A DNA stretch of 58,864 nt, taken from the NCBI GenBank assembly GCA_017633115.1, contig JAGBPZ010000167.1, forward strand, positions 1-58,864, given 5' to 3'. Within the stretch, counting starts at the first letter, position 1. Every line of letters begins with the position of its first letter. The DNA is from Erysipelotrichaceae bacterium (lineage in GTDB: Bacteria; Bacillota_I; Bacilli_A; Erysipelotrichales; Coprobacillaceae). The notes below the pieces were generated by a model. The model was not told the origin of the DNA, searched no databases, and saw only the letters and a program-made list of their open reading frames with translations. The position numbers and the translations under genes were made by a program. Below, one piece after another: positions 49,276 through 58,864 of this stretch.

Positions 49276-49538
49276 TATATTTGTCCTCTTTCTGCCTGCA
49301 TAACAGGACTTATTGTTTTCAATGTTATATTCATTTATACCATGACGCCCTTTTTGTTGCAAGAATATCTATACCTTAAAGAAAAATTTTCTCTTTAAAA
49401 ATTCTCATTTTCCTAAAATATCACGTTTTATTATCGATTTAAGCAATTTATTTTATTGAAGCTCTTAATTTTTGATTTGTTTCACTATGTAATTCATAGT
49501 GAATTCGCTATAATAAAATCATAATTGAGGTGAAGCCA
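49276..49538. promoter_or_regulatory. Divergent region with a palindrome at the carboxypeptidase promoter
   Basis: A perfect 9-bp inverted repeat TTCACTATG-N5-CATAGTGAA (49481-49503) ends 5 bases before TATAAT (49509-49514). It covers the weak -35 position of the carboxypeptidase promoter. The ald side holds only a short leader with a small hairpin near 49295-49310. Confidence 0.65.
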
Positions 49539-51200
49539 ATGAAAAAACTGTTATTAATAGTATTAACTTTGTTTTTACTACTAGGATCTGGAAATATAAT
49601 CAACGCGGAAGACTCTGTCATTCCTGATGATTCTTCCGATATTGTCGAGGAAGTCGAAGCGTTTGGTGTCAAAGGCATTGATTACAATGTCATTAAAAAA
49701 AGTGACGAATCATATACCAACACCATTACAGTTACCCCTGCTGGCACTTACTATATCGATCTTCAATACAATAATGGCTCATCTTATAAAACTATCGCTT
49801 CTTATACCACTGATCATGATGGGATTGCTGATGTTGAATTTCCTGATGACTATTGGGCAAATGCAAGCCATACAAAATGGCGCATAATTGTCAATGCTAC
49901 ACCTGATACGGAAGAATATATCAGTGATGATATCACTCTGTACACAAGTAACCGTGATACTTTAAAACTCTATGGTGATGTGGGCTATATCTATAATATC
50001 GAACATCAATTACCAGTCTATCAAAAGAATACAACAAAGCAGCATGAGATTGCGAGCATCACAAAGATCATGACAGCTATTCTAGCAATTGAAAATTGTG
50101 ATTTAGATGATGAAGTCACTATTTCCAGTACCGCTGCCAAAACATCTTATTCACACATTCTATTAACAGAAAATGAAAAAGTCACTGTTAAGAATTTGCT
50201 TTATGCCGCTATGCTGCCTTCAAGTAATGGCGCTGCCCGTGCTTTAGGTGAGCATGTTGCTGGCAGTCAAAGTGACTTTGCCAAACTCATGAATGAAAAA
50301 GCAAAAGAACTTGGCTGCACAAATACTCATTTTGTCAACTGCCATGGACTTCATCATAAGGATCACTACTCCACAGCACATGATGTGGCTTTGATTTTAG
50401 CTTATGCTTACCAAAACAGCACTTTTAGAAAAATCATTGGTACAACAAGTTATACTTATCAAAATGTAGATGGCACTTATACTTGTCCACTAGCAAGCAC
50501 TAATAAACTTCTAACAATGTCTGGTGTGGAAGGTGGTAAAACAGGTTTCACCGATGAAGCCGGCAAATGTTATGCTGGAGTGTTTAGTTATAAGGGCGAA
50601 CACTATGTCACCGTGACATTGGGCTGTAAAACAAGCAAAAAGCGTTGGCATGATGCTAAACATTTAATCAGCTATATTAAGTATTGGTATGGTAATCCAT
50701 ATACAATTTATTATCATACTGATGGTGGCGAAATAGATGACTATTCGCCTCGTACATATAACGGTAAACAAACAGTGACTTTGTTAAAAGCGACAAAGCG
50801 TAATTATTTCTTTAAAGGTTGGTATACAAGTGCAGCTTTAAAAACAAAAATCACGACCATCAAAAAAGGTAAAAGTGGTCATAAACATCTTTATGCTAAG
50901 TGGTCAAAAGTTAAAGTCAAAAAAGCAAGAAAACCTAAGGTTAAAAATATTAAAAAGAAAAAAATCATTGCTACATGGAAAAAGACAACTTCTGCTAAAG
51001 GTTATCAATTACAATATTCAACAGATAAAACTTTCATAGAAAATGTTAAAACAAAGTCCACAAAGAAGAAATCATTGACTGTCAAGTGTGATAAAAAAGG
51101 TACTTACTATGTCCATGTACGTGCCTACCGTCTTGATTCAACAGGTCATAAAGTCTATGGACTTTGGAGCACACCAGTTACAGTCAAAGTCAAAAAATAG
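49539..51200 (+). CDS. dacA: Secreted D-alanyl-D-alanine carboxypeptidase (S11) with C-terminal repeats
   Basis: The 553-residue exported enzyme trims peptidoglycan stem peptides. The signal peptide is at 1-25, followed by an unassigned domain of about 100 residues. The S11 domain has SITK (Ser near 173), SSN near 228 and KTG near 333. After it come an InlB-type B repeat (about 388-460, TIYYHTDGGEID, FFKGWYTS, KHLYAKW) and a Lys-rich fibronectin-like domain (about 465-553). No LPXTG or C-terminal amphipathic anchor is visible; the basic tail may bind the wall (inference). ATG 49539 follows GAGG. Confidence 0.93.
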   Translation: MKKLLLIVLTLFLLLGSGNIINAEDSVIPDDSSDIVEEVEAFGVKGIDYNVIKKSDESYTNTITVTPAGTYYIDLQYNNGSSYKTIASYTTDHDGIADVEFPDDYWANASHTKWRIIVNATPDTEEYISDDITLYTSNRDTLKLYGDVGYIYNIEHQLPVYQKNTTKQHEIASITKIMTAILAIENCDLDDEVTISSTAAKTSYSHILLTENEKVTVKNLLYAAMLPSSNGAARALGEHVAGSQSDFAKLMNEKAKELGCTNTHFVNCHGLHHKDHYSTAHDVALILAYAYQNSTFRKIIGTTSYTYQNVDGTYTCPLASTNKLLTMSGVEGGKTGFTDEAGKCYAGVFSYKGEHYVTVTLGCKTSKKRWHDAKHLISYIKYWYGNPYTIYYHTDGGEIDDYSPRTYNGKQTVTLLKATKRNYFFKGWYTSAALKTKITTIKKGKSGHKHLYAKWSKVKVKKARKPKVKNIKKKKIIATWKKTTSAKGYQLQYSTDKTFIENVKTKSTKKKSLTVKCDKKGTYYVHVRAYRLDSTGHKVYGLWSTPVTVKVKK

Positions 51201-51280: not shown

Positions 51281-51484
51281 TTATTTGGATGAAGCTCGGA
51301 TAATCTTTTGGATTTCGCTTCTTTCAAGCCAGATTGTTTTTCCATCCACTAAGTGGACCATTTCCACATCATTTTTATAATCGTTGCCGATATAAATAAT
51401 CTCATCAATGTTTAAAAGTATAGATTTTCTACCCAGACCAGAAACATCTTTACGATAAATATTAATTGGTACAAATTTCGCCAT
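51281..51484 (-). CDS. Small protein of unknown function (67 aa)
   Basis: The 67-residue soluble protein is predicted to be mainly beta-strand with a C-terminal helix. The pattern ILLNIDEIIYIGND, then VHLVDGKTIWLERSEIQKII, resembles FlbD-like or LytTR-like small beta proteins, but no firm family is recognised. AGGAGAG precedes ATG 51484. It follows the terminator of the AAA+ operon in the same direction, so it is probably a separate unit. Confidence 0.65.
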   Translation of the reverse strand: MAKFVPINIYRKDVSGLGRKSILLNIDEIIYIGNDYKNDVEMVHLVDGKTIWLERSEIQKIIRASSK

Positions 51485-51537: not shown

Positions 51538-51577
51538 AGAAAAAGTGATATTGATTGATCCTCAATATCACTTTTAT
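51538..51577 (-). terminator. Terminator of the AAA+ operon
   Basis: A perfect 14-bp stem (51541-51554 with 51562-51575) with a 7-base loop is followed by a T-tract on the minus strand, just past the AAA+ stop. Confidence 0.92.
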
Positions 51578-51579
51578 AA

Positions 51580-54500
51580 TTATGACAGATTACAAACTTT
51601 GATGATTTCTGCTACTGAAGGTATATCTTCTATGGTCACAGACATCTTGATATCATCATCACTTATAGTTTCAATCAAACGATTTTCAACATTATTTCTA
51701 ATCGCATCATATAATTCTCTGATAGTACGTCCATTCGCAAACTTTTTTTCTTCATGAATGATTTTAATGATGTCATTGATTTTTTCTTGAGCATCATTAT
51801 TCACCGTGAGTTGATCCTTTGACATCATATATTTGATAATATCAATGCATTCTTCAACTGAATAGTCAGGGAAATTAATTTCCTTTATTCGACTCTTCAA
51901 CCCTGGATTAATGGCATAAAGGCCATCCATCTCACCAGGATATCCTGCAAAAATCAAACAACTGTTACGACGATACTGTTCATCATCCATGAATCGAACC
52001 AGTTCGGCAATGGCTTCTTTGCCGAAATTATTATCACTGCCATTAGCGAGAATATAGGCTTCATCAATTAATGTAATACAACCAAGACCACTTTCTAATA
52101 CACTTCTCGTCTTAAGTGCAGTCTGCCCTACATAACCTGCTACAAGATCAGATGCACCATTTGTACGGTAAGGCCTTGTCAATATACCTAACTCTCGTAA
52201 GTAACGATCAAGAAGTTCAACGCTTGTGGTTTTCCCAGCGCCTGGCTTTCCTTTGAAGAAATAGTGACCAGGTTCAATAGTCTTAGCATGCTGAGGGACT
52301 TTTTTATTAAAGATTTCTGTCTTAATGATTTTCTTTATGACATCCTTTAATTCTTTGTTGCCAGTGCGTTCATGGTCGATTTGTTCAAGCATTACTTTCA
52401 AACGATCTAATTCCTGTTCTTTAGATTCAGGAGAATAACGCATAATGATATTTGGATCTAAATCATCAATGCTAAGAATCTTACGATTTGTCTTATCGGC
52501 ATGACGATTGTGCATAGTAATTAAATCATCTAACAGATTCTTGATCTGACGTGCATTTCCTGAATCAGGAGTGCGATGTTCATATAAAGACTGACAATAG
52601 TTCTCTACTATCGCATTGAGTTCATCAGTTGAGTGATAACCTTTGGATTGCGTCATTTTCAAGAATATTGAATATAACTCTTTACCAGAATAGTCATGTA
52701 GATGAATAATACTACGACTGCGACCTCCTTCACGTCTGGCATCAAAGCGGTTGCCAAAGCCAGGGTCTAGATTAAGGAACTGATCAAGATTCTTTTCATA
52801 GATTGCAAAGATTACTCTTAACGGTTTCTTTTGATCTTCAATTGGTGCTAAAAACGTCTGAATAACTTCTTTACCGGTTGCATGATCAGCACCATTCAAT
52901 AATTGATGACACTCATCGACAAGCAAAAGACGATTACCACTTAAGGCTTCATCAATGACTTTTTTAGCGTCTGCTTTACTACCATTTTGATAAGTGCTCA
53001 TAAGTGCATCAGATGAAATCCTGACAGATTCAGCACTTGAAATGACATGGAGACGATAATAGAAATTTGTCATCAAGTCAAACAATGTTGATTTACCAGT
53101 ACCAGAATTACCTGCAATAATCAAAGGTCTTACTGGCATATGGAAAACAGATTGGCCATCTTCTTTATAAGCATTGACAGCATAGGCAATATCACGCAAG
53201 TGTTCAATGACATCATCAAATCCCACATAACGCTCATTAATATCTTTAATGATGTCTTCAAGAACTTCAAGTGGTGATTCTTCTTTAGGAGGCAGTACAG
53301 ACATATAGTTATCAGGTAAATCGTTAACCTCATATACTTTAGCCTCTGGTGATGCTAAATCTATACCTTGAGCCTTACATCTTTCGATACGTTTGTCATT
53401 CATCTTTTCCAGAATGTTTTTCATTTCTCCTGCGTTACGATGATCAGCATCATTGACTTCATGGACATACTCACAGATACGCTTAAGCTCTTCGTCACAT
53501 TCCGCAGTTGATGATTGATTGTTTTTGCGCATCATCAGTTTTATGATTTCAAAAAGCTCTTCTGCTGAATAGTCATCAATCACAATACGTGTGAAACGTC
53601 TACTGACGCCAGGATTGAGAGCATCAAACTCTTTTTCTTTGTTTGGATAAAGAGCAACTGTACACATTAATGGATTATCGCGACTTGTTGCAGATTCTGT
53701 AGGTGCTAATAAGGCACTGACAATTCCTGCGCCATCAATATTACGTTCCGTCAGACTAGATGCCTCATCAACAAATAACATTGCCTGACGACTTTGTGCT
53801 TCATCAATATATTTCTTGAATTTTTCGATTCCAGCGCCTACATATTGACTAGCTAAGTCTGTGGCTGTACAGTCGACATTTTGTGATGTACCCGTAAGTC
53901 CAAGTTGGAAGTAAAGACGTCCTAATATTGCTCCAATCTCACTCTTACCCGTACCAGGATTGCCAATAAGTTTAATAGAACCGGCATGGACTTCGTCTAG
54001 CGGTCTATTATTGGCTTTGGCATCTTCCACGCGATTGGCTAAATTGATCAGCTGTTGACGAACGCCCTTCATGCCAATGTAATTCTGATCCAAATCATTG
54101 AGAATACTATTTATAGAATCATTCGTATCAATATCTTCAAACCATTTTTCATCAATGATTCTATCGTTCACAGATAGTCCATAGAAATCCGACTCTATAG
54201 CTGGTTTAGAAAGACATTTTGCATAAATGCTTTCTGCCATTGTTTCCATGACACGACCATTGCCAAAATGGCGACGGTCACGAGAATGATAAATTGATGA
54301 CATCAAACAAAGCAAACTACCATCCTCAATGAGAGCAGGATCAACACTACCACCTTTTTCATCAAGTTTTGATAGAAAAATCTTCATCAGTAATTCAGGA
54401 TCATAGTCTTTTAATGTGATGATATTGTTTTTGAAGCGGCTTTTAAAGCCCTGATCAAGATTAAAAATTTTATCCATATCACCATCATATCCAGCGATGA

Positions 54501-56106
54501 TGAGAGAGAAATGATGCTGGTTAGAAGTTAACGCCCCATTTAAAGTACGAATAATACTCAATCCTGTTGGAATATTATTAGCACCGCCATCCTGATCCGC
54601 TAAAGATTCAGCTTCATCTATAAATAAAACTGATTCTTCAGCATTACTAATAGCTTCACGTGTATATCGTTCAGCAGCATTCTGATAAATATCTGTCAAT
54701 TCAGACTTATTCAACTCATTAAAGCGACCAATATCGAGAATATTGTGTTGTTTTAGAACTTTACCGATTATTTCAGCAATTGTCGACTTACCAGTTCCAG
54801 AAGGTCCTTGTACAACGAAATTTGGAATGTCAGTATTAGGACGTTTACCGATGACGTCATCACTTAAACGTTCAATCGCAAATTCCGTCGAATACCCCCT
54901 TTGCTCTGTTGGATGAAGTACATGATACTTTTCAATTGCCTGTTTGACAACTTTATAAGCTTCTTCCCAGCCTTCTTTATTAAGTTCTTCCAGATAATCT
55001 TTTTCCTCTTCAGTATGGTAAATAGTACGAATCGTTTCAGTAGTGAACTTTAACGTTTCTCCTTTTGTGGAATGAAGATGAATATAATTGTCGACATGAG
55101 TCATCATCTCACGCATAGTCTGTGGTTGAGGAATACGACCAAAGGTATACTGTTGAGAGCAACTTTGAAGCTCTTTCGCAATGTCAAATAGGTCTGTGTA
55201 ATTGAATGTGATTTTTTGTCCTTTTGATGTACCTAACAATGTGAGACGTCTTAAATAATTAACGATTTCATCAAGAGTTGGATAGCCAATATGTACCGTT
55301 GTTGATTCATTTAGTCTATATTCGTCACCATTTCTCACGGTAAACTTATCAGTAAACCCACTATCATGAAGTACTCGGTCATTACGAAGTCTATTGACAA
55401 TAGCTGTCTCGCTATCGTTTTCCATCATAAATAAACAGATATTATGTAAGTCCATACGATTCATCTCTATTATGATGTCATGGAGTAATGATGGATATTG
55501 AAGCGCGAGATTATATGTATCATAGAAAATAACAGCTAAGTCCTGATCATCACGATTACGAAGCTTCATACGAATATCAGGCACAAAAACCTCTGGTGTC
55601 ATTTGCTTTAACGAATAACGCACTTTAGATATTGGCTCAGAGTCTTGCTTAGTAGTTGTCTGAGTTGTCGTCTTTTCACCCTTTTGCTGGCGCTCATGAG
55701 GATGATAACCTCTGCAACGGCGACGTTTGGTACCTTTACCAAACGCTCCTTTCATAATATCGTCCTCGTCATCGTTGTCATCGGTCTTATCTTCGGTCTT
55801 ATCAATGTTTGACTTTGCCTTTTGTTCAAGGCGTTTCAACAAATCTTCAAAACCGAACTTCTCAAATGGTTTTACCGATTTATTATCGCCAAAATACCAA
55901 CGTGCACTTTCCTGATCGATTGTATAAACTCCACGTGCCCCTTCTGTGCCATAGAAAACAATATGACGATAACCATTTTTCTTAAGCAGTTGAACAAGAT
56001 ATGTTTCTAAATCCAAATTCATCAAATCCGCTGTTACAATACGATCCGTCATTTTGCCCCACAATAAGTATGAGTGAGAAAATGGTCGATCTAAAAATGT
56101 CTGCAT
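51580..56106 (-). CDS. Giant AAA+ ATPase with four CbxX/SpoVK-type modules
   Basis: The 1508-residue cytoplasmic protein has a non-AAA N-terminal region (1-400, with a basic Ser/Thr/Gln-rich linker near 120-155) and four AAA+ modules. Walker A motifs lie near residues 434 (GPSGTGKS), 714 (GNPGTGKS), 999 (GNSGTGKS) and 1286 (GKPGAGKT). Walker B motifs are FIDEAESL, FVDEASSL, LVDECHQL and LIDEAYIL. Arg-finger segments are FKSRF, VSRRF, FGNRF and LKSRI. Modules 1 and 4 have the CbxX/SpoVK signature GY..EMD or GDMD. All four look ATP-competent. SpoVK, CbbX and EccA relatives usually have one module and remodel protein complexes. It is the last gene of the operon; GGAGA precedes ATG 56106. Confidence 0.93.
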   Translation of the reverse strand: MQTFLDRPFSHSYLLWGKMTDRIVTADLMNLDLETYLVQLLKKNGYRHIVFYGTEGARGVYTIDQESARWYFGDNKSVKPFEKFGFEDLLKRLEQKAKSNIDKTEDKTDDNDDEDDIMKGAFGKGTKRRRCRGYHPHERQQKGEKTTTQTTTKQDSEPISKVRYSLKQMTPEVFVPDIRMKLRNRDDQDLAVIFYDTYNLALQYPSLLHDIIIEMNRMDLHNICLFMMENDSETAIVNRLRNDRVLHDSGFTDKFTVRNGDEYRLNESTTVHIGYPTLDEIVNYLRRLTLLGTSKGQKITFNYTDLFDIAKELQSCSQQYTFGRIPQPQTMREMMTHVDNYIHLHSTKGETLKFTTETIRTIYHTEEEKDYLEELNKEGWEEAYKVVKQAIEKYHVLHPTEQRGYSTEFAIERLSDDVIGKRPNTDIPNFVVQGPSGTGKSTIAEIIGKVLKQHNILDIGRFNELNKSELTDIYQNAAERYTREAISNAEESVLFIDEAESLADQDGGANNIPTGLSIIRTLNGALTSNQHHFSLIIAGYDGDMDKIFNLDQGFKSRFKNNIITLKDYDPELLMKIFLSKLDEKGGSVDPALIEDGSLLCLMSSIYHSRDRRHFGNGRVMETMAESIYAKCLSKPAIESDFYGLSVNDRIIDEKWFEDIDTNDSINSILNDLDQNYIGMKGVRQQLINLANRVEDAKANNRPLDEVHAGSIKLIGNPGTGKSEIGAILGRLYFQLGLTGTSQNVDCTATDLASQYVGAGIEKFKKYIDEAQSRQAMLFVDEASSLTERNIDGAGIVSALLAPTESATSRDNPLMCTVALYPNKEKEFDALNPGVSRRFTRIVIDDYSAEELFEIIKLMMRKNNQSSTAECDEELKRICEYVHEVNDADHRNAGEMKNILEKMNDKRIERCKAQGIDLASPEAKVYEVNDLPDNYMSVLPPKEESPLEVLEDIIKDINERYVGFDDVIEHLRDIAYAVNAYKEDGQSVFHMPVRPLIIAGNSGTGKSTLFDLMTNFYYRLHVISSAESVRISSDALMSTYQNGSKADAKKVIDEALSGNRLLLVDECHQLLNGADHATGKEVIQTFLAPIEDQKKPLRVIFAIYEKNLDQFLNLDPGFGNRFDARREGGRSRSIIHLHDYSGKELYSIFLKMTQSKGYHSTDELNAIVENYCQSLYEHRTPDSGNARQIKNLLDDLITMHNRHADKTNRKILSIDDLDPNIIMRYSPESKEQELDRLKVMLEQIDHERTGNKELKDVIKKIIKTEIFNKKVPQHAKTIEPGHYFFKGKPGAGKTTSVELLDRYLRELGILTRPYRTNGASDLVAGYVGQTALKTRSVLESGLGCITLIDEAYILANGSDNNFGKEAIAELVRFMDDEQYRRNSCLIFAGYPGEMDGLYAINPGLKSRIKEINFPDYSVEECIDIIKYMMSKDQLTVNNDAQEKINDIIKIIHEEKKFANGRTIRELYDAIRNNVENRLIETISDDDIKMSVTIEDIPSVAEIIKVCNLS

Positions 56107-56115
56107 AGAGTTCTC

Positions 56116-57015
56116 CTATCTTGTGACTTTCTTATTAATTACCTTTTCCTGATCGTTATAATCTTTATCTTTTGCTTCTTTATTGGCAGTTGTTTTATCG
56201 CATGTAATATGACCTTTAAGGCCAATAGCTGCAAGTGCTTTGGTTCTAAAGTTTGCCAGATCTTCTTCTGACAATGTCACATTGTTTTCATAATAGTTCT
56301 TATGCTCAATCACAATATTATGTGGATTTAATTCTGGGTCATCATTATCAAGAGTGAAAACCATCTTATCATTTGTTGCTTTGTTGACATAATGAGCAAC
56401 AATCTTTTCGCTCAAATCATCACCAACATTTTCAATCCAATCCAACTTGTAGTTTTGTTCGCGCATGAACTTATTCAAACGTTTGATGATTTCCAGTTCA
56501 CGATATCTGTTCATCAAATATGCCTGAGAGCGTTTGACAACTTCATCAGCTTTTTGCAGCAGCTCGTTATCATAAAGCTGATCTAGCATCTGCAACTGAT
56601 AAGCTTCATCATCCTGACCTTCAATTTCAGGTAACTTTTCTAAAAGATTGTCGATTTGCTCCTGTAAAGCAGCATAGTCACCGCGAGAATATTCATCAAG
56701 ATCTTCTTCGAGTTCATCGTCATCAGCCGGATTATCAGTAACATCCTTCAAATTGAAAGTAATATAACGTTGCTCTTCCAATTGATCTTTCAAACCAATT
56801 AATTTTGCACGTAATTCTCCACGCATTTCAACAAGTCTTAAATCTTTATCTGACTGTTCATAGTTCAATACAGCTGAATCAGTGACGATTTTCTTACTTG
56901 TTGCAATGACAGCTTCGTAACTGCCATTATTGAATGATTCGACAGCTTTATTATAACTTTTTATAAGCGCATTGACTTCCTTTTGGAAAGACACATCTTT
57001 AGATGAATCAGCCAT
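56116..57015 (-). CDS. Operon partner of the giant AAA+ ATPase, helical plus beta domain
   Basis: The 299-residue acidic protein, not recognised, starts with a helical region (about 1-200) including FNNGSYEAVIATSKKIV and a Glu/Asp-rich stretch at 90-110. It ends with a mixed alpha/beta domain (about 190-275, KLDWIENVGDDLSEKIVAHY) and a Lys-rich tail. No membrane span is seen. It lies 9 bases before the AAA+ start, so is a likely partner or substrate adaptor (inference). It shares its layout with the gene at 57634. Confidence 0.7.
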   Translation of the reverse strand: MADSSKDVSFQKEVNALIKSYNKAVESFNNGSYEAVIATSKKIVTDSAVLNYEQSDKDLRLVEMRGELRAKLIGLKDQLEEQRYITFNLKDVTDNPADDDELEEDLDEYSRGDYAALQEQIDNLLEKLPEIEGQDDEAYQLQMLDQLYDNELLQKADEVVKRSQAYLMNRYRELEIIKRLNKFMREQNYKLDWIENVGDDLSEKIVAHYVNKATNDKMVFTLDNDDPELNPHNIVIEHKNYYENNVTLSEEDLANFRTKALAAIGLKGHITCDKTTANKEAKDKDYNDQEKVINKKVTR

Positions 57016-57033
57016 TAATTTAAGCAGATCAAC

Positions 57034-57621
57034 TTAAGCTTTTGCATCTTTAAGTACTAATTCAGCGACACCACGCTGCTGTGCTTTAGCGGTCTCAGTT
57101 TGATCTTTAAAGTTTAATAAGTCTGTTTTCAATTCTAAGGCTTTGTTATAGGTTTTGATGTAGTCCTGATAAAGTTTCTTATTATCCTCATCACGGATTT
57201 TGAGATATGCTTCTTTTTCTTTCTTGAACTGTGCAAAAGCTTGCGCTTTCATCTTATCGAGTTTCTTTTCAAAGCCTTCGGTATCGATATCTTTTTCGGT
57301 GATCTTTTCTAAGTCCTTTTGAGTATTCTTAAAGATATTAGCCATATCATTATAGAATTGCTTATCAGCATCAGCCTGTTGATCAAAAGCTTTCTGCATA
57401 TCTTTATAAAGTTTGTCAAGGTCTTTAGAACAGTTTGTCACAGTTTGCGTTTTCTTGACCGCTTTCGCATTATTGACATCATCAACTAAATCAACAATTG
57501 CTTTACCAACACCTACTGCCATGGCTACAGCTGCACCAACCATTACGACTTTAATAATAACTGGTAAAAAGAGTAAACCAATACCAATCGCAAATAATCC
57601 GCCAAATCCATCTCCACTCAT
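57034..57621 (-). CDS. Membrane-anchored coiled-coil protein of the AAA+ operon
   Basis: The 195-residue protein starts MSGDGFGG and has an N-terminal hydrophobic region at about 8-46 (GLFAIGIGLLFLPVIIKVVM, then a second short span). A long charged coiled coil follows (about 60-190). It should sit in the membrane with the coiled coil in the cytoplasm. No family is recognised. AGGAGG precedes ATG 57621. It may tether the AAA+ machine to the membrane (inference). Confidence 0.75.
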   Translation of the reverse strand: MSGDGFGGLFAIGIGLLFLPVIIKVVMVGAAVAMAVGVGKAIVDLVDDVNNAKAVKKTQTVTNCSKDLDKLYKDMQKAFDQQADADKQFYNDMANIFKNTQKDLEKITEKDIDTEGFEKKLDKMKAQAFAQFKKEKEAYLKIRDEDNKKLYQDYIKTYNKALELKTDLLNFKDQTETAKAQQRGVAELVLKDAKA

Positions 57622-57633
57622 AATAAGATCCTC

Positions 57634-58864
57634 CTAATTATATTTCCTTTCATAGATAACCGCCTGCAAGTTGACATCTGCCTGCTTCTTTAACTGATTT
57701 TCAACGTTTTCCATATCCTGGACATTATCCGTTACACCATTTTCAAAATCGATGATCTGAGATGTTGGAAAAGTATGTTGTAAGTAAGTTCGAATATGAT
57801 CAACAATATCCTCAATGATTTTAGTATCGGCATGAGACTTTGTGATTGTCTCAATAATAAAGTCATTGCGTATGGTTACCCCATCTTCACGATACGGAAC
57901 GATATGAACAATCACTTCATCTAAACGATTATATGTAACACGTACCACAAAGGCATCTAATAGATTACTCTGATCGCTTGCAGGTGAAGTCTCATCTTTA
58001 TCGCTAAACTGACATTCTATTGTCTCATAGAGCAATTCCTCATAGAAATCAGCAATCAAATTGCCTGCTACAAAACGTTCATCAGAGAAGAAACATTCAT
58101 TTTTAATACAGGCTATCATGGCTTCTAAATGATCTGATAGGCGATTAGCTGCACTAATATCAGCTAAGAACTGGAAACTCTTGTGCCCATTACCCTCTTT
58201 AAGGAAAGCATCGAGTCCATTTTGTTCGATTGAATCAATAGTATCGAAGTGTGGTTGAAGTTGTTTCATCAGTTCACTGTAATAATGTTTACTCCAGTAA
58301 TCATCATAAGTTTCATCCATCACCATATTACCTGCAGGTGTTGTCAATGGCATTTCATTTAATTGTGTCAATGATTCACGCATACGAAGGACAACATCGC
58401 GATAGTCATTGTACATGGATTCCCATTCATGTTTAGCAGCTTCAACTCGTAATGCCAAACGCTCAAACTCCATTGATGCAGCATCACATACAGCAACAGC
58501 TGCTTCATAATATTCTTGCTTAATGAGATTAACAGCTTCAGCAAGATGTTCTGAAAAAATCATGAATTCACTTGGATAGAAGAATTCATGAGGCAATTGA
58601 TCAGTTATTGCTTTAGTATCAACTGCTTCCTGATATTGTTCTTCTGCAAGCTTTTTTGAGCCCTCTTTCTTTTTATTTTGGTCATCTTTGATAGCCTGAA
58701 AAGCTTTAGCAATCTCCTCATTTTCTTTTTCTAATTCATGAATGAGTTTTGCCTGTTGTTCACGATATGCTTTTTCCTGCTCCTGAAGAACTTTGATATC
58801 TTTGTTGTACTGAGCAACAATCTTTTCCTGATATTCCTTTGCTTTTTGTGCATATGTCGCATCT
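57634..58864 (-). CDS. Partial coiled-coil plus helical/beta protein (5' end outside window)
   Basis: This minus-strand frame stays open from 57634 to the right edge: 89 codons lie upstream of the first apparent TTG at 58596, with no stop. The gene is therefore cut by the window; at least 409 residues are visible. The upstream part is a Gln/Glu/Lys-rich coiled coil (AQKAKEYQEKIVAQYN, then EQEKAYREQQAKLI). It is followed by a helical region (EYYEAAVAVCDAASMEFERL) and a C-terminal domain with strands (FVVRVTYNRLDEVIVHIVPY). It is upstream in the AAA+ operon, 12 bases before the membrane protein gene. Function is unknown. Confidence 0.8.
   Translation of the reverse strand, partial: DATYAQKAKEYQEKIVAQYNKDIKVLQEQEKAYREQQAKLIHELEKENEEIAKAFQAIKDDQNKKKEGSKKLAEEQYQEAVDTKAITDQLPHEFFYPSEFMIFSEHLAEAVNLIKQEYYEAAVAVCDAASMEFERLALRVEAAKHEWESMYNDYRDVVLRMRESLTQLNEMPLTTPAGNMVMDETYDDYWSKHYYSELMKQLQPHFDTIDSIEQNGLDAFLKEGNGHKSFQFLADISAANRLSDHLEAMIACIKNECFFSDERFVAGNLIADFYEELLYETIECQFSDKDETSPASDQSNLLDAFVVRVTYNRLDEVIVHIVPYREDGVTIRNDFIIETITKSHADTKIIEDIVDHIRTYLQHTFPTSQIIDFENGVTDNVQDMENVENQLKKQADVNLQAVIYERKYN

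What the first reader, a model, noticed from the sequence alone, without database searches (positions are those of the whole stretch)
51580..58864. Operon around a four-module CbxX/SpoVK AAA+ ATPase: best candidate for an undescribed system
Four consecutive minus-strand genes with gaps of 9 to 18 bases encode a coiled-coil/beta protein (partial), a membrane-anchored coiled-coil protein, a helical/beta protein and a 1508-residue protein with four AAA+ modules, closed by a strong terminator. Families with CbxX/SpoVK AAA domains (CbbX, EccA, SpoVK) normally have one module and remodel another complex. Here the modules are on one chain beside a membrane tether and two related partner proteins. None of the partners is recognised. 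A membrane-tethered remodelling machine is an inference; the type VII secretion link suggested by EccA is not supported, because no WXG100, EssC or related gene is in view.
Basis: partly seen in the sequence, partly recalled or inferred. Interest (0 to 1): 0.78.

Follow-up and report, generated by a model that had tools for sequence, protein, structure and literature searches.

The report
Kinase-controlled chaperone operon ending in quadruple AAA+
The four genes at the end of this contig are the tail of a roughly 24-kb, 22-gene bacterial operon that joins a kinase/phosphatase/vWA switch, Hsp70, a DNA-pump-like ATPase and a protein carrying four AAA+ motors, next to a swappable toxin-like gene; the whole combination recurs in related gut bacteria and I found no description of it.

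Summary
In detail: a minus-strand cluster at 51580-58864 ends in a 1508-residue protein with four intact CbxX/SpoVK AAA+ modules and a real hairpin terminator. Two corrections. The 'membrane-anchored' 195-aa ORF and the 299-aa ORF lie in one frame, split by a single TAA; together they match an uninterrupted ~450-495-aa protein in relatives, so they are probably one gene. The operon does not start here: exact 141-nt and 122-nt contig overlaps join the window to contigs C43 and C69 of the same genome. This gives 22 genes: vWA, PP2C, kinase with zinc ribbon (a TerY-P triad), GrpE, Hsp70, three transglutaminase-like proteins, an HExxH protein, a VirD4/TraD-like ATPase, an NrdG-like radical SAM protein and coiled-coil proteins. 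Three genomes carry the set; a fourth locus carries its 3' half. Of about 316 genomes of the order, the same four hold both the AAA+ and the first partner. The gene before the VirD4-like ATPase varies (HExxH protein or endonuclease), and all three versions have the most acidic C-terminal tails of 79 proteins compared. EssC and VirB4 are absent, so it is neither an ordinary type VII nor type IV system. Best reading: a phospho-switched chaperone/ATPase system handling a variable effector. New variant of a known kind.

The parts
51580..56106 (-). 1508-aa protein: N-terminal region (aa 1-395) conserved across the four loci, then four CbxX/SpoVK-type AAA+ modules
   Evidence: Pfam AAA, 4 stretches, E 4.7e-45; TIGR02881 1.2e-132 summed over 4 modules; homologues in G032, G068, G303
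54922..56106 (-). N-terminal region of the AAA+ protein (aa 1-395), marker of this family; no Pfam domain; fold not determined
   Evidence: profile search hits 4 of 316 genomes of the order; AlphaFold2 model unusable, pLDDT 34
54157..54921 (-). AAA+ module 1
   Evidence: clusters with module 1 of the three other loci, 96/92
53317..54129 (-). AAA+ module 2 (divergent class)
   Evidence: clade 98/99 with modules 2-3 of the other loci
52447..53289 (-). AAA+ module 3 (divergent class)
   Evidence: clade 98/99 with modules 2-3 of the other loci
51607..52425 (-). AAA+ module 4, canonical CbbX/SpoVK type
   Evidence: best PDB match CbbX, E about 3e-33; groups with ordinary SpoVK-like modules
56116..57015 (-). 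299-aa ORF: C-terminal part of the P2 family (helical bundle, then beta strands and a helix)
   Evidence: phmmer 2.6e-17 to the 449-aa protein of G303; AlphaFold2 pLDDT 68
57034..57621 (-). 195-aa ORF with N-terminal glycine-rich transmembrane stretch and coiled coil; in frame with the 299-aa ORF, probably the N-terminal half of the same gene
   Evidence: same frame; alignment through the stop
57034..57036 (-). in-frame TAA that separates the two halves
   Evidence: sequence; uninterrupted homologues in G303, G032, G068
57634..58863 (-). P4: 409 residues of a 466-aa coiled-coil/beta protein; its start lies on contig C43
   Evidence: 141-nt exact overlap with the end of C43; phmmer 3.5e-21 to G303, 3.4e-10 to G068
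51540..51575 (-). intrinsic terminator, 14-bp A+T-rich stem then U's
   Evidence: fold z -3.96, 0 of 200 shuffles as stable

Best explanation
The window holds the 3' end of a 22-gene operon encoding a phosphorylation-switched, chaperone-driven effector system. Shown: the gene set, its joining across contigs, its recurrence in three genera, and domain assignments. Inferred: a TerY-P triad (vWA, PP2C, kinase with zinc ribbon) sets the state of the system. Coiled-coil proteins P4 and P3/P2, possibly held at the membrane by the small membrane proteins, form a scaffold. Hsp70/GrpE and the multi-module SpoVK-type ATPase build or remodel that scaffold, as CbbX, EccA and SpoVK act on one dedicated target. 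The VirD4/TraD-like ATPase then engages or moves the variable effector encoded just before it, recognised by its acidic C-terminal tail. Release inside the cell (stress or phage response) or export to other cells are both possible.
For: Contig joins by exact overlaps; short gaps and one direction throughout. Domains: vWA 6e-08, PP2C 5e-32, kinase 8e-16, GrpE 3e-11, HSP70 9e-52, TrwB 2e-33, radical SAM/Fer4_12 5e-26; transglutaminase-like by homology to G068. VirD4, radical SAM, P4, AAA+, transglutaminase, kinase, PP2C and Hsp70 recur in G000 and its relatives G032 and/or G068 by direct sequence match; vWA and P2 also recur, joined to G000 by profile or through G303. AAA+ N-terminal region and P4 occur in the same four genomes of about 316. 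Effector slot: HExxH proteins in G000 and G032, Endonuclea_NS_2 9e-19 in G068, each within 20 nt of the VirD4 gene; the three rank 1-3 of 79 in C-terminal acidity. No VirB4. Literature: SpoVK/CbbX/EccA clade are dedicated chaperones (PMC10659427); TerY-P triads accompany conflict systems (PMC11090510).
Against: No function is tested. The effector reading rests on three proteins, and the acidity ranking was made after seeing them. No immunity gene was identified. The VirD4-like protein has no transmembrane anchor and no T4SS partner, so export is unproven; a plasmid relative in Curtobacterium sits near DNA-processing genes. The gene order of G000 differs from G032/G068 (the halves are swapped). 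The zinc ribbon on the kinase is seen only in G000. The stop inside P3/P2 may mean that this copy is impaired. Only four loci are known, and G303 is a contaminated assembly.
Confidence: 0.5

Rival explanations
1. An anti-invader (phage or plasmid) defence system: the TerY-P switch and chaperones activate the VirD4/HerA-like DNA pump and a resident nuclease or protease inside the cell.
For: TerY-P modules are reported as part of or beside defence systems (PMC11090510). Kinase resembles PD-T4-6 (1.6e-17) and mad6; VirD4-like protein resembles mad8 (9e-14) and HerA models. Patchy presence, 4 of 316 genomes.
Against: No PADLOC model matches as a system; the similarities are generic kinase/HerA ones. 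No McrB/C, HEPN, methyltransferase or nucleic-acid sensor was recognised among the operon proteins scanned. The effector is an HExxH protein in two of three loci.
Confidence: 0.3
2. A type VII secretion accessory system, with the multi-module ATPase as an EccA-like chaperone for WXG100 substrates.
For: In G068, EssC (two ORFs) and WXG100-like genes lie just upstream on the same strand. EccA belongs to the same AAA+ clade and EccA1 is among the three PDB matches.
Against: G000 and G032 have no EssC; their only hits are ordinary FtsK/SpoIIIE of 769-806 aa. The EccA model is far below its cut-off, 348 against 467 bits, even summed over four modules.
Confidence: 0.1
3. A surviving accessory region of a conjugative or mobile element; the VirD4-like protein is a coupling protein and the rest is regulation.
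For: VirD4/TraD family with TraG-D_C domain; patchy distribution.
Against: No VirB4 in G000, G032 or G068. No plasmid or phage match to P4, P2 or x404 in the searches made. G+C is like the host's. Relaxases were not searched.
Confidence: 0.08

Closest known systems
Type III-A CoCoNuT operons with TerY-P triad and SpoVK/EssC/HerA extensions (eLife 2024, PMC11090510)
   Same: vWA + PP2C + kinase-zinc ribbon, Hsp70-like proteins, coiled coils and SpoVK-like or FtsK/HerA ATPases in one operon
   Different: no McrB GTPase, McrC, CARF or HEPN recognised; the CoCoNuT SpoVK proteins have one active module of two, here four of four are intact; VirD4/TraD-like instead of EssC/VirB4-like ATPase in G000 and G032; GrpE, transglutaminase-like and radical SAM proteins added
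GAP1-N2 double-GTPase conflict systems (eLife 2020, PMC7159879)
   Same: accessory themes HSP70 + GrpE, and kinase-zinc ribbon + PP2C + stand-alone vWA
   Different: no DO-GTPase, GAP1 or FNIII component recognised; in that paper the two themes do not overlap, here both occur together
TerY-P island of Helicobacter pylori (PMC4978471)
   Same: TerY-P triad with WXG100/FtsK genes, as in the G068 copy
   Different: that island carries McrC-type and LHH nuclease genes; not reported there with a multi-module SpoVK ATPase, Hsp70 or VirD4
CbbX / SpoVK / EccA AAA+ chaperones
   Same: same AAA+ clade; module 4 matches CbbX
   Different: those have one AAA+ module; here four on one chain with a different N-terminal region

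Membership tests
TerY-P triad | stand-alone vWA protein with DxSxS MIDAS motif | tested here: met
   L105:5925-6629, VWA 6e-08, DASAS; DTSAS in G068, changed to DTSKY in G032
TerY-P triad | PP2C phosphatase next to it | tested here: met
   L105:6631-8076, PP2C_2 5e-32; also G032 and G068
TerY-P triad | Ser/Thr kinase fused to a C-terminal zinc ribbon | tested here: met
   L105:8083-9405, Pkinase 8e-16, CPHC...CFNC; the G068 kinase has no such Cys pairs, G032's is cut
TerY-P triad | acts as a phosphorylation switch | not testable with these tools
   needs biochemistry
Type III-A CoCoNuT | McrB-type GTPase, McrC homologue and HEPN/helicase components | tested here: not met
   none in Pfam scans of the G000 operon proteins or G032/G068 counterparts; tm66 and GNAT were not scanned
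SpoVK (TIGR02881) | single-module sporulation ATPase above the curated cut-off | tested here: not met
   440.8 against 422.95 bits only because four modules are summed; length and architecture differ
EccA (TIGR03922) | score above cut-off | tested here: not met
   348 against 467 bits
EccA / type VII secretion | EssC/EccC in the genome | tested here: not met
   G000: only a 769-aa FtsK/SpoIIIE hit, no hit over cut-off
type VII secretion | WXG100 proteins in the genome | tested here: inconclusive
   0 hits, but the same search misses the WXG100 protein of G068, so it is not sensitive enough
CbbX (TIGR02880) | score above cut-off | tested here: not met
   355 against 459 bits
type IV secretion / conjugation | VirB4 ATPase with the VirD4 coupling protein | tested here: not met
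   0 of 3 genomes
GAP1-N2 double-GTPase systems | DO-GTPase and GAP1 proteins | tested here: not met
   no such Pfam match among the scanned operon proteins; presence of these models in this Pfam copy was not checked
known anti-phage systems (PADLOC) | full set of a described system | tested here: not met
   only generic kinase, HerA/mad8, IetA and viperin-like similarities

The most novel reading that the evidence does not exclude
A distinct, undescribed effector-handling machine of gut Bacillota: a TerY-P switch, Hsp70/GrpE and a multi-motor SpoVK ATPase assemble a coiled-coil scaffold from which a VirD4-like pump deploys interchangeable toxic effectors marked by an acidic C-terminal tail.
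Probability: 0.3. Interest if true: 0.82.

Novelty: new variant of a known kind. Interest (0 to 1): 0.62.

Why it matters
It links three things so far seen apart: phosphorylation-switch (TerY-P) modules, Hsp70/GrpE and SpoVK-clade chaperones, and a secretion-type ATPase with an exchangeable toxin-like gene. If right, it gives SpoVK-clade ATPases a testable role in deploying effectors outside type VII secretion, and gives TerY-P triads a concrete machine to control. It also shows that NCBI's SpoVK model is passed here only by adding up four modules.

Tried and rejected
Type VII link for this genome: EssC absent. Conjugation: VirB4 absent. Wider spread: the N-terminal profile gave only one further, weak hit in 395 class-level genomes (E 4e-4, G636, fetched but not analysed) and none in 295 phylum-level ones; no usable viral or plasmid match. 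Plasmid hits of the whole AAA+ protein are generic multi-AAA proteins in unrelated neighbourhoods; VirD4 hits on Curtobacterium and Paenibacillus plasmids lack the rest of the set. Folds: P2 model (pLDDT 68) had no significant PDB match; the N-terminal model failed (pLDDT 34). The idea that this N-terminal region is a dead AAA+ domain shared with a ClpB-like protein of G303 was not supported (hhalign 1%). P2 and P4 as paralogues: not supported. x388/x404 and cc361/cc276 are alike by position and look, but not by profile.

Full report
What is in the window. The contig ends at 58864. On the minus strand lie, in order of transcription, P4 (409 residues of a longer protein), a 195-aa ORF (P3), a 299-aa ORF (P2) and a 1508-aa protein. 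The large protein has four AAA+ modules of the CbxX/SpoVK/EccA clade, each with Walker A, Walker B and arginine-finger motifs. The modules are 23-29% identical to one another, so this is not a recent tandem duplication. The terminator is real: a 14-bp A+T-rich stem then U's at 51575-51540, z -4.0.

P3 and P2 are probably one gene. They share a frame and are separated by a TAA and six sense codons; P2 has no Shine-Dalgarno while P3 and the AAA+ gene do. The homologues in G303, G032 and G068 are uninterrupted, 449-495 aa; 195 + 299 is 494. The alignment with G303 continues through the stop, LKDAKA*VDLL against LKDAKASLRM. P3 against the N-terminal part of the G303 protein scores above all but 1 of 500 shuffles; against G032 and G068 the signal is weak (22 and 55 of 500). 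Whether the stop is a mutation, a real split or a sequencing error cannot be told from one assembly. The transmembrane stretch of P3 is not present in the G032 and G068 homologues.

The operon is much longer. A query made of candidate accessory proteins found radical SAM and transglutaminase-like genes on contig C43 of the same genome. The end of C43 overlaps the reverse complement of the window by 141 identical bases, and the end of C69 overlaps the start of C43 by 122; both overlaps lie inside ORFs that continue. The joined order is: vWA 234 aa, PP2C 481, kinase 440 with CxxC...CxxC, GrpE-domain protein 385, Hsp70 494, three transglutaminase-like proteins of 251-256, 103 aa, HExxH protein 307, VirD4/TraD-like ATPase 446, 388 aa, two membrane proteins (238 and 66), GNAT-like 138 (by eye), 336 aa (looks like a degenerate kinase by eye, not supported by profiles), radical SAM 196, coiled coil 361, P4 466, P3/P2, AAA+ 1508 (domains). 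All lie on one strand with gaps of at most 42 bases.

Conservation. A profile of the AAA+ N-terminal region hits 4 of 316 genomes of the order, and a profile of P4 hits the same four of 315. The first profile was built from two of the four loci and found the other two; the P4 profile was built from all four, so there the informative part is that it finds nothing elsewhere. In G032 (four contigs, no overlaps between them) and G068 (one contig, C80) the set is: effector-like gene, VirD4-like ATPase, ~400-aa protein, membrane protein, radical SAM, coiled coil, P4, P2, AAA+ with three modules, a second AAA protein, transglutaminase-like, kinase, vWA, PP2C, 574/587-aa protein, Hsp70. G303 has radical SAM, coiled coil, P4, P2 and a two-module AAA+ protein. 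Cross-genome phmmer values with G000 run from 5e-86 (VirD4) to about 1e-11 (PP2C, Hsp70); vWA matches by profile only (5e-06), and P2 of G000 matches G303 directly and G032 only through G303. In G000 the regulatory half comes first, in G032/G068 last. Module 1 is orthologous across the four loci (96/92), modules 2 and 3 form one clade with theirs (98/99), and module 4 is the ordinary SpoVK type.

The effector slot. Within 0-20 nt before the VirD4-like gene stands an HExxH protein in G000 and G032, and a DNA/RNA non-specific endonuclease-domain protein in G068 (PF13930, 9e-19). None has a transmembrane stretch by a simple hydropathy scan. Their last 50 residues have the highest net acidity of 79 proteins in these loci, ranks 1, 2 and 3. 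I chose this comparison after noticing the tails, so it is a lead, not a test.

What it is not. Of the three genomes, G068 alone has EssC and WXG100-like genes upstream; G000 and G032 have only ordinary FtsK/SpoIIIE. The WXG100 genome search found nothing even in G068, so it cannot prove absence. None has VirB4. No PADLOC system matches. The AAA+ protein passes NCBI's SpoVK cut-off only because four modules are summed.

Mechanism. Characterised members of this AAA+ clade are dedicated chaperones acting on one target or place (PMC10659427). TerY-P triads are thought to be phosphorylation switches and occur with conflict systems, sometimes with SpoVK, EssC or HerA-like ATPases (PMC11090510; PMC4978471). 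HSP70 + GrpE and kinase-zinc ribbon + PP2C + vWA occur as separate themes of GAP1-N2 GTPase systems (PMC7159879). From this I infer a phospho-switched, chaperone-built scaffold and a VirD4-like pump that handles a variable effector. Whether the effector acts inside the cell or is exported is open.

Novelty. Each component type is known; I found no description of this combination in the papers searched. The key earlier survey (Anantharaman et al. 2012) did not turn up in the library, so it may contain related neighbourhoods.

Noticed in passing
L108:4375-10500, L064:1-5156 (G068:C80:4375-15155): G068 has a type VII-like locus (several WXG100/LXG-like small proteins, EssC split in two ORFs) directly upstream of its copy of the system, on the same strand.
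   Followed up: partly
L104 (G303:C189): A parallel cluster: kinase, PP2C, ClpB-like AAA+, radical SAM related to the one here (hhalign 99.9%), FHA-like protein and a 547-aa membrane/coiled-coil protein; possibly a sister system built on a ClpB-type motor.
   Followed up: partly
L106:135-12230 (G068): A run of Hsp70- and actin-like genes (849, 527, 483, 526, 501 and 519 aa) at the end of the G068 locus; unusual number of Hsp70-like paralogues in one cluster.
   Followed up: no
L042, L045, L050, L052: Elsewhere in the order, SpoVK-like AAA+ genes lie next to XpaC-like (PF10112) genes, and in L045 and L052 also next to a TelA (PF05816) or TelA-like gene.
   Followed up: no
L036-L038: About 1300-aa proteins with repeats like Sel1/TPR followed by two CbxX-type modules, next to a gene that looks like RNase Z; another multi-module SpoVK architecture.
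   Followed up: no
window 49530-51200 (+): D-alanyl-D-alanine carboxypeptidase (Peptidase_S11) with a Listeria-Bacteroides repeat, convergent with the operon; not part of it.
   Followed up: no
window 51281-51484 (-): 67-aa ORF with an upstream AGGAG just after the terminator; looks like a separate small gene.
   Followed up: no
L116, L117: Soluble VirD4/TraD-like ATPases 30-32% identical to the one of this operon lie on Curtobacterium and Paenibacillus megaplasmids among DNA-processing or unannotated genes.
   Followed up: partly
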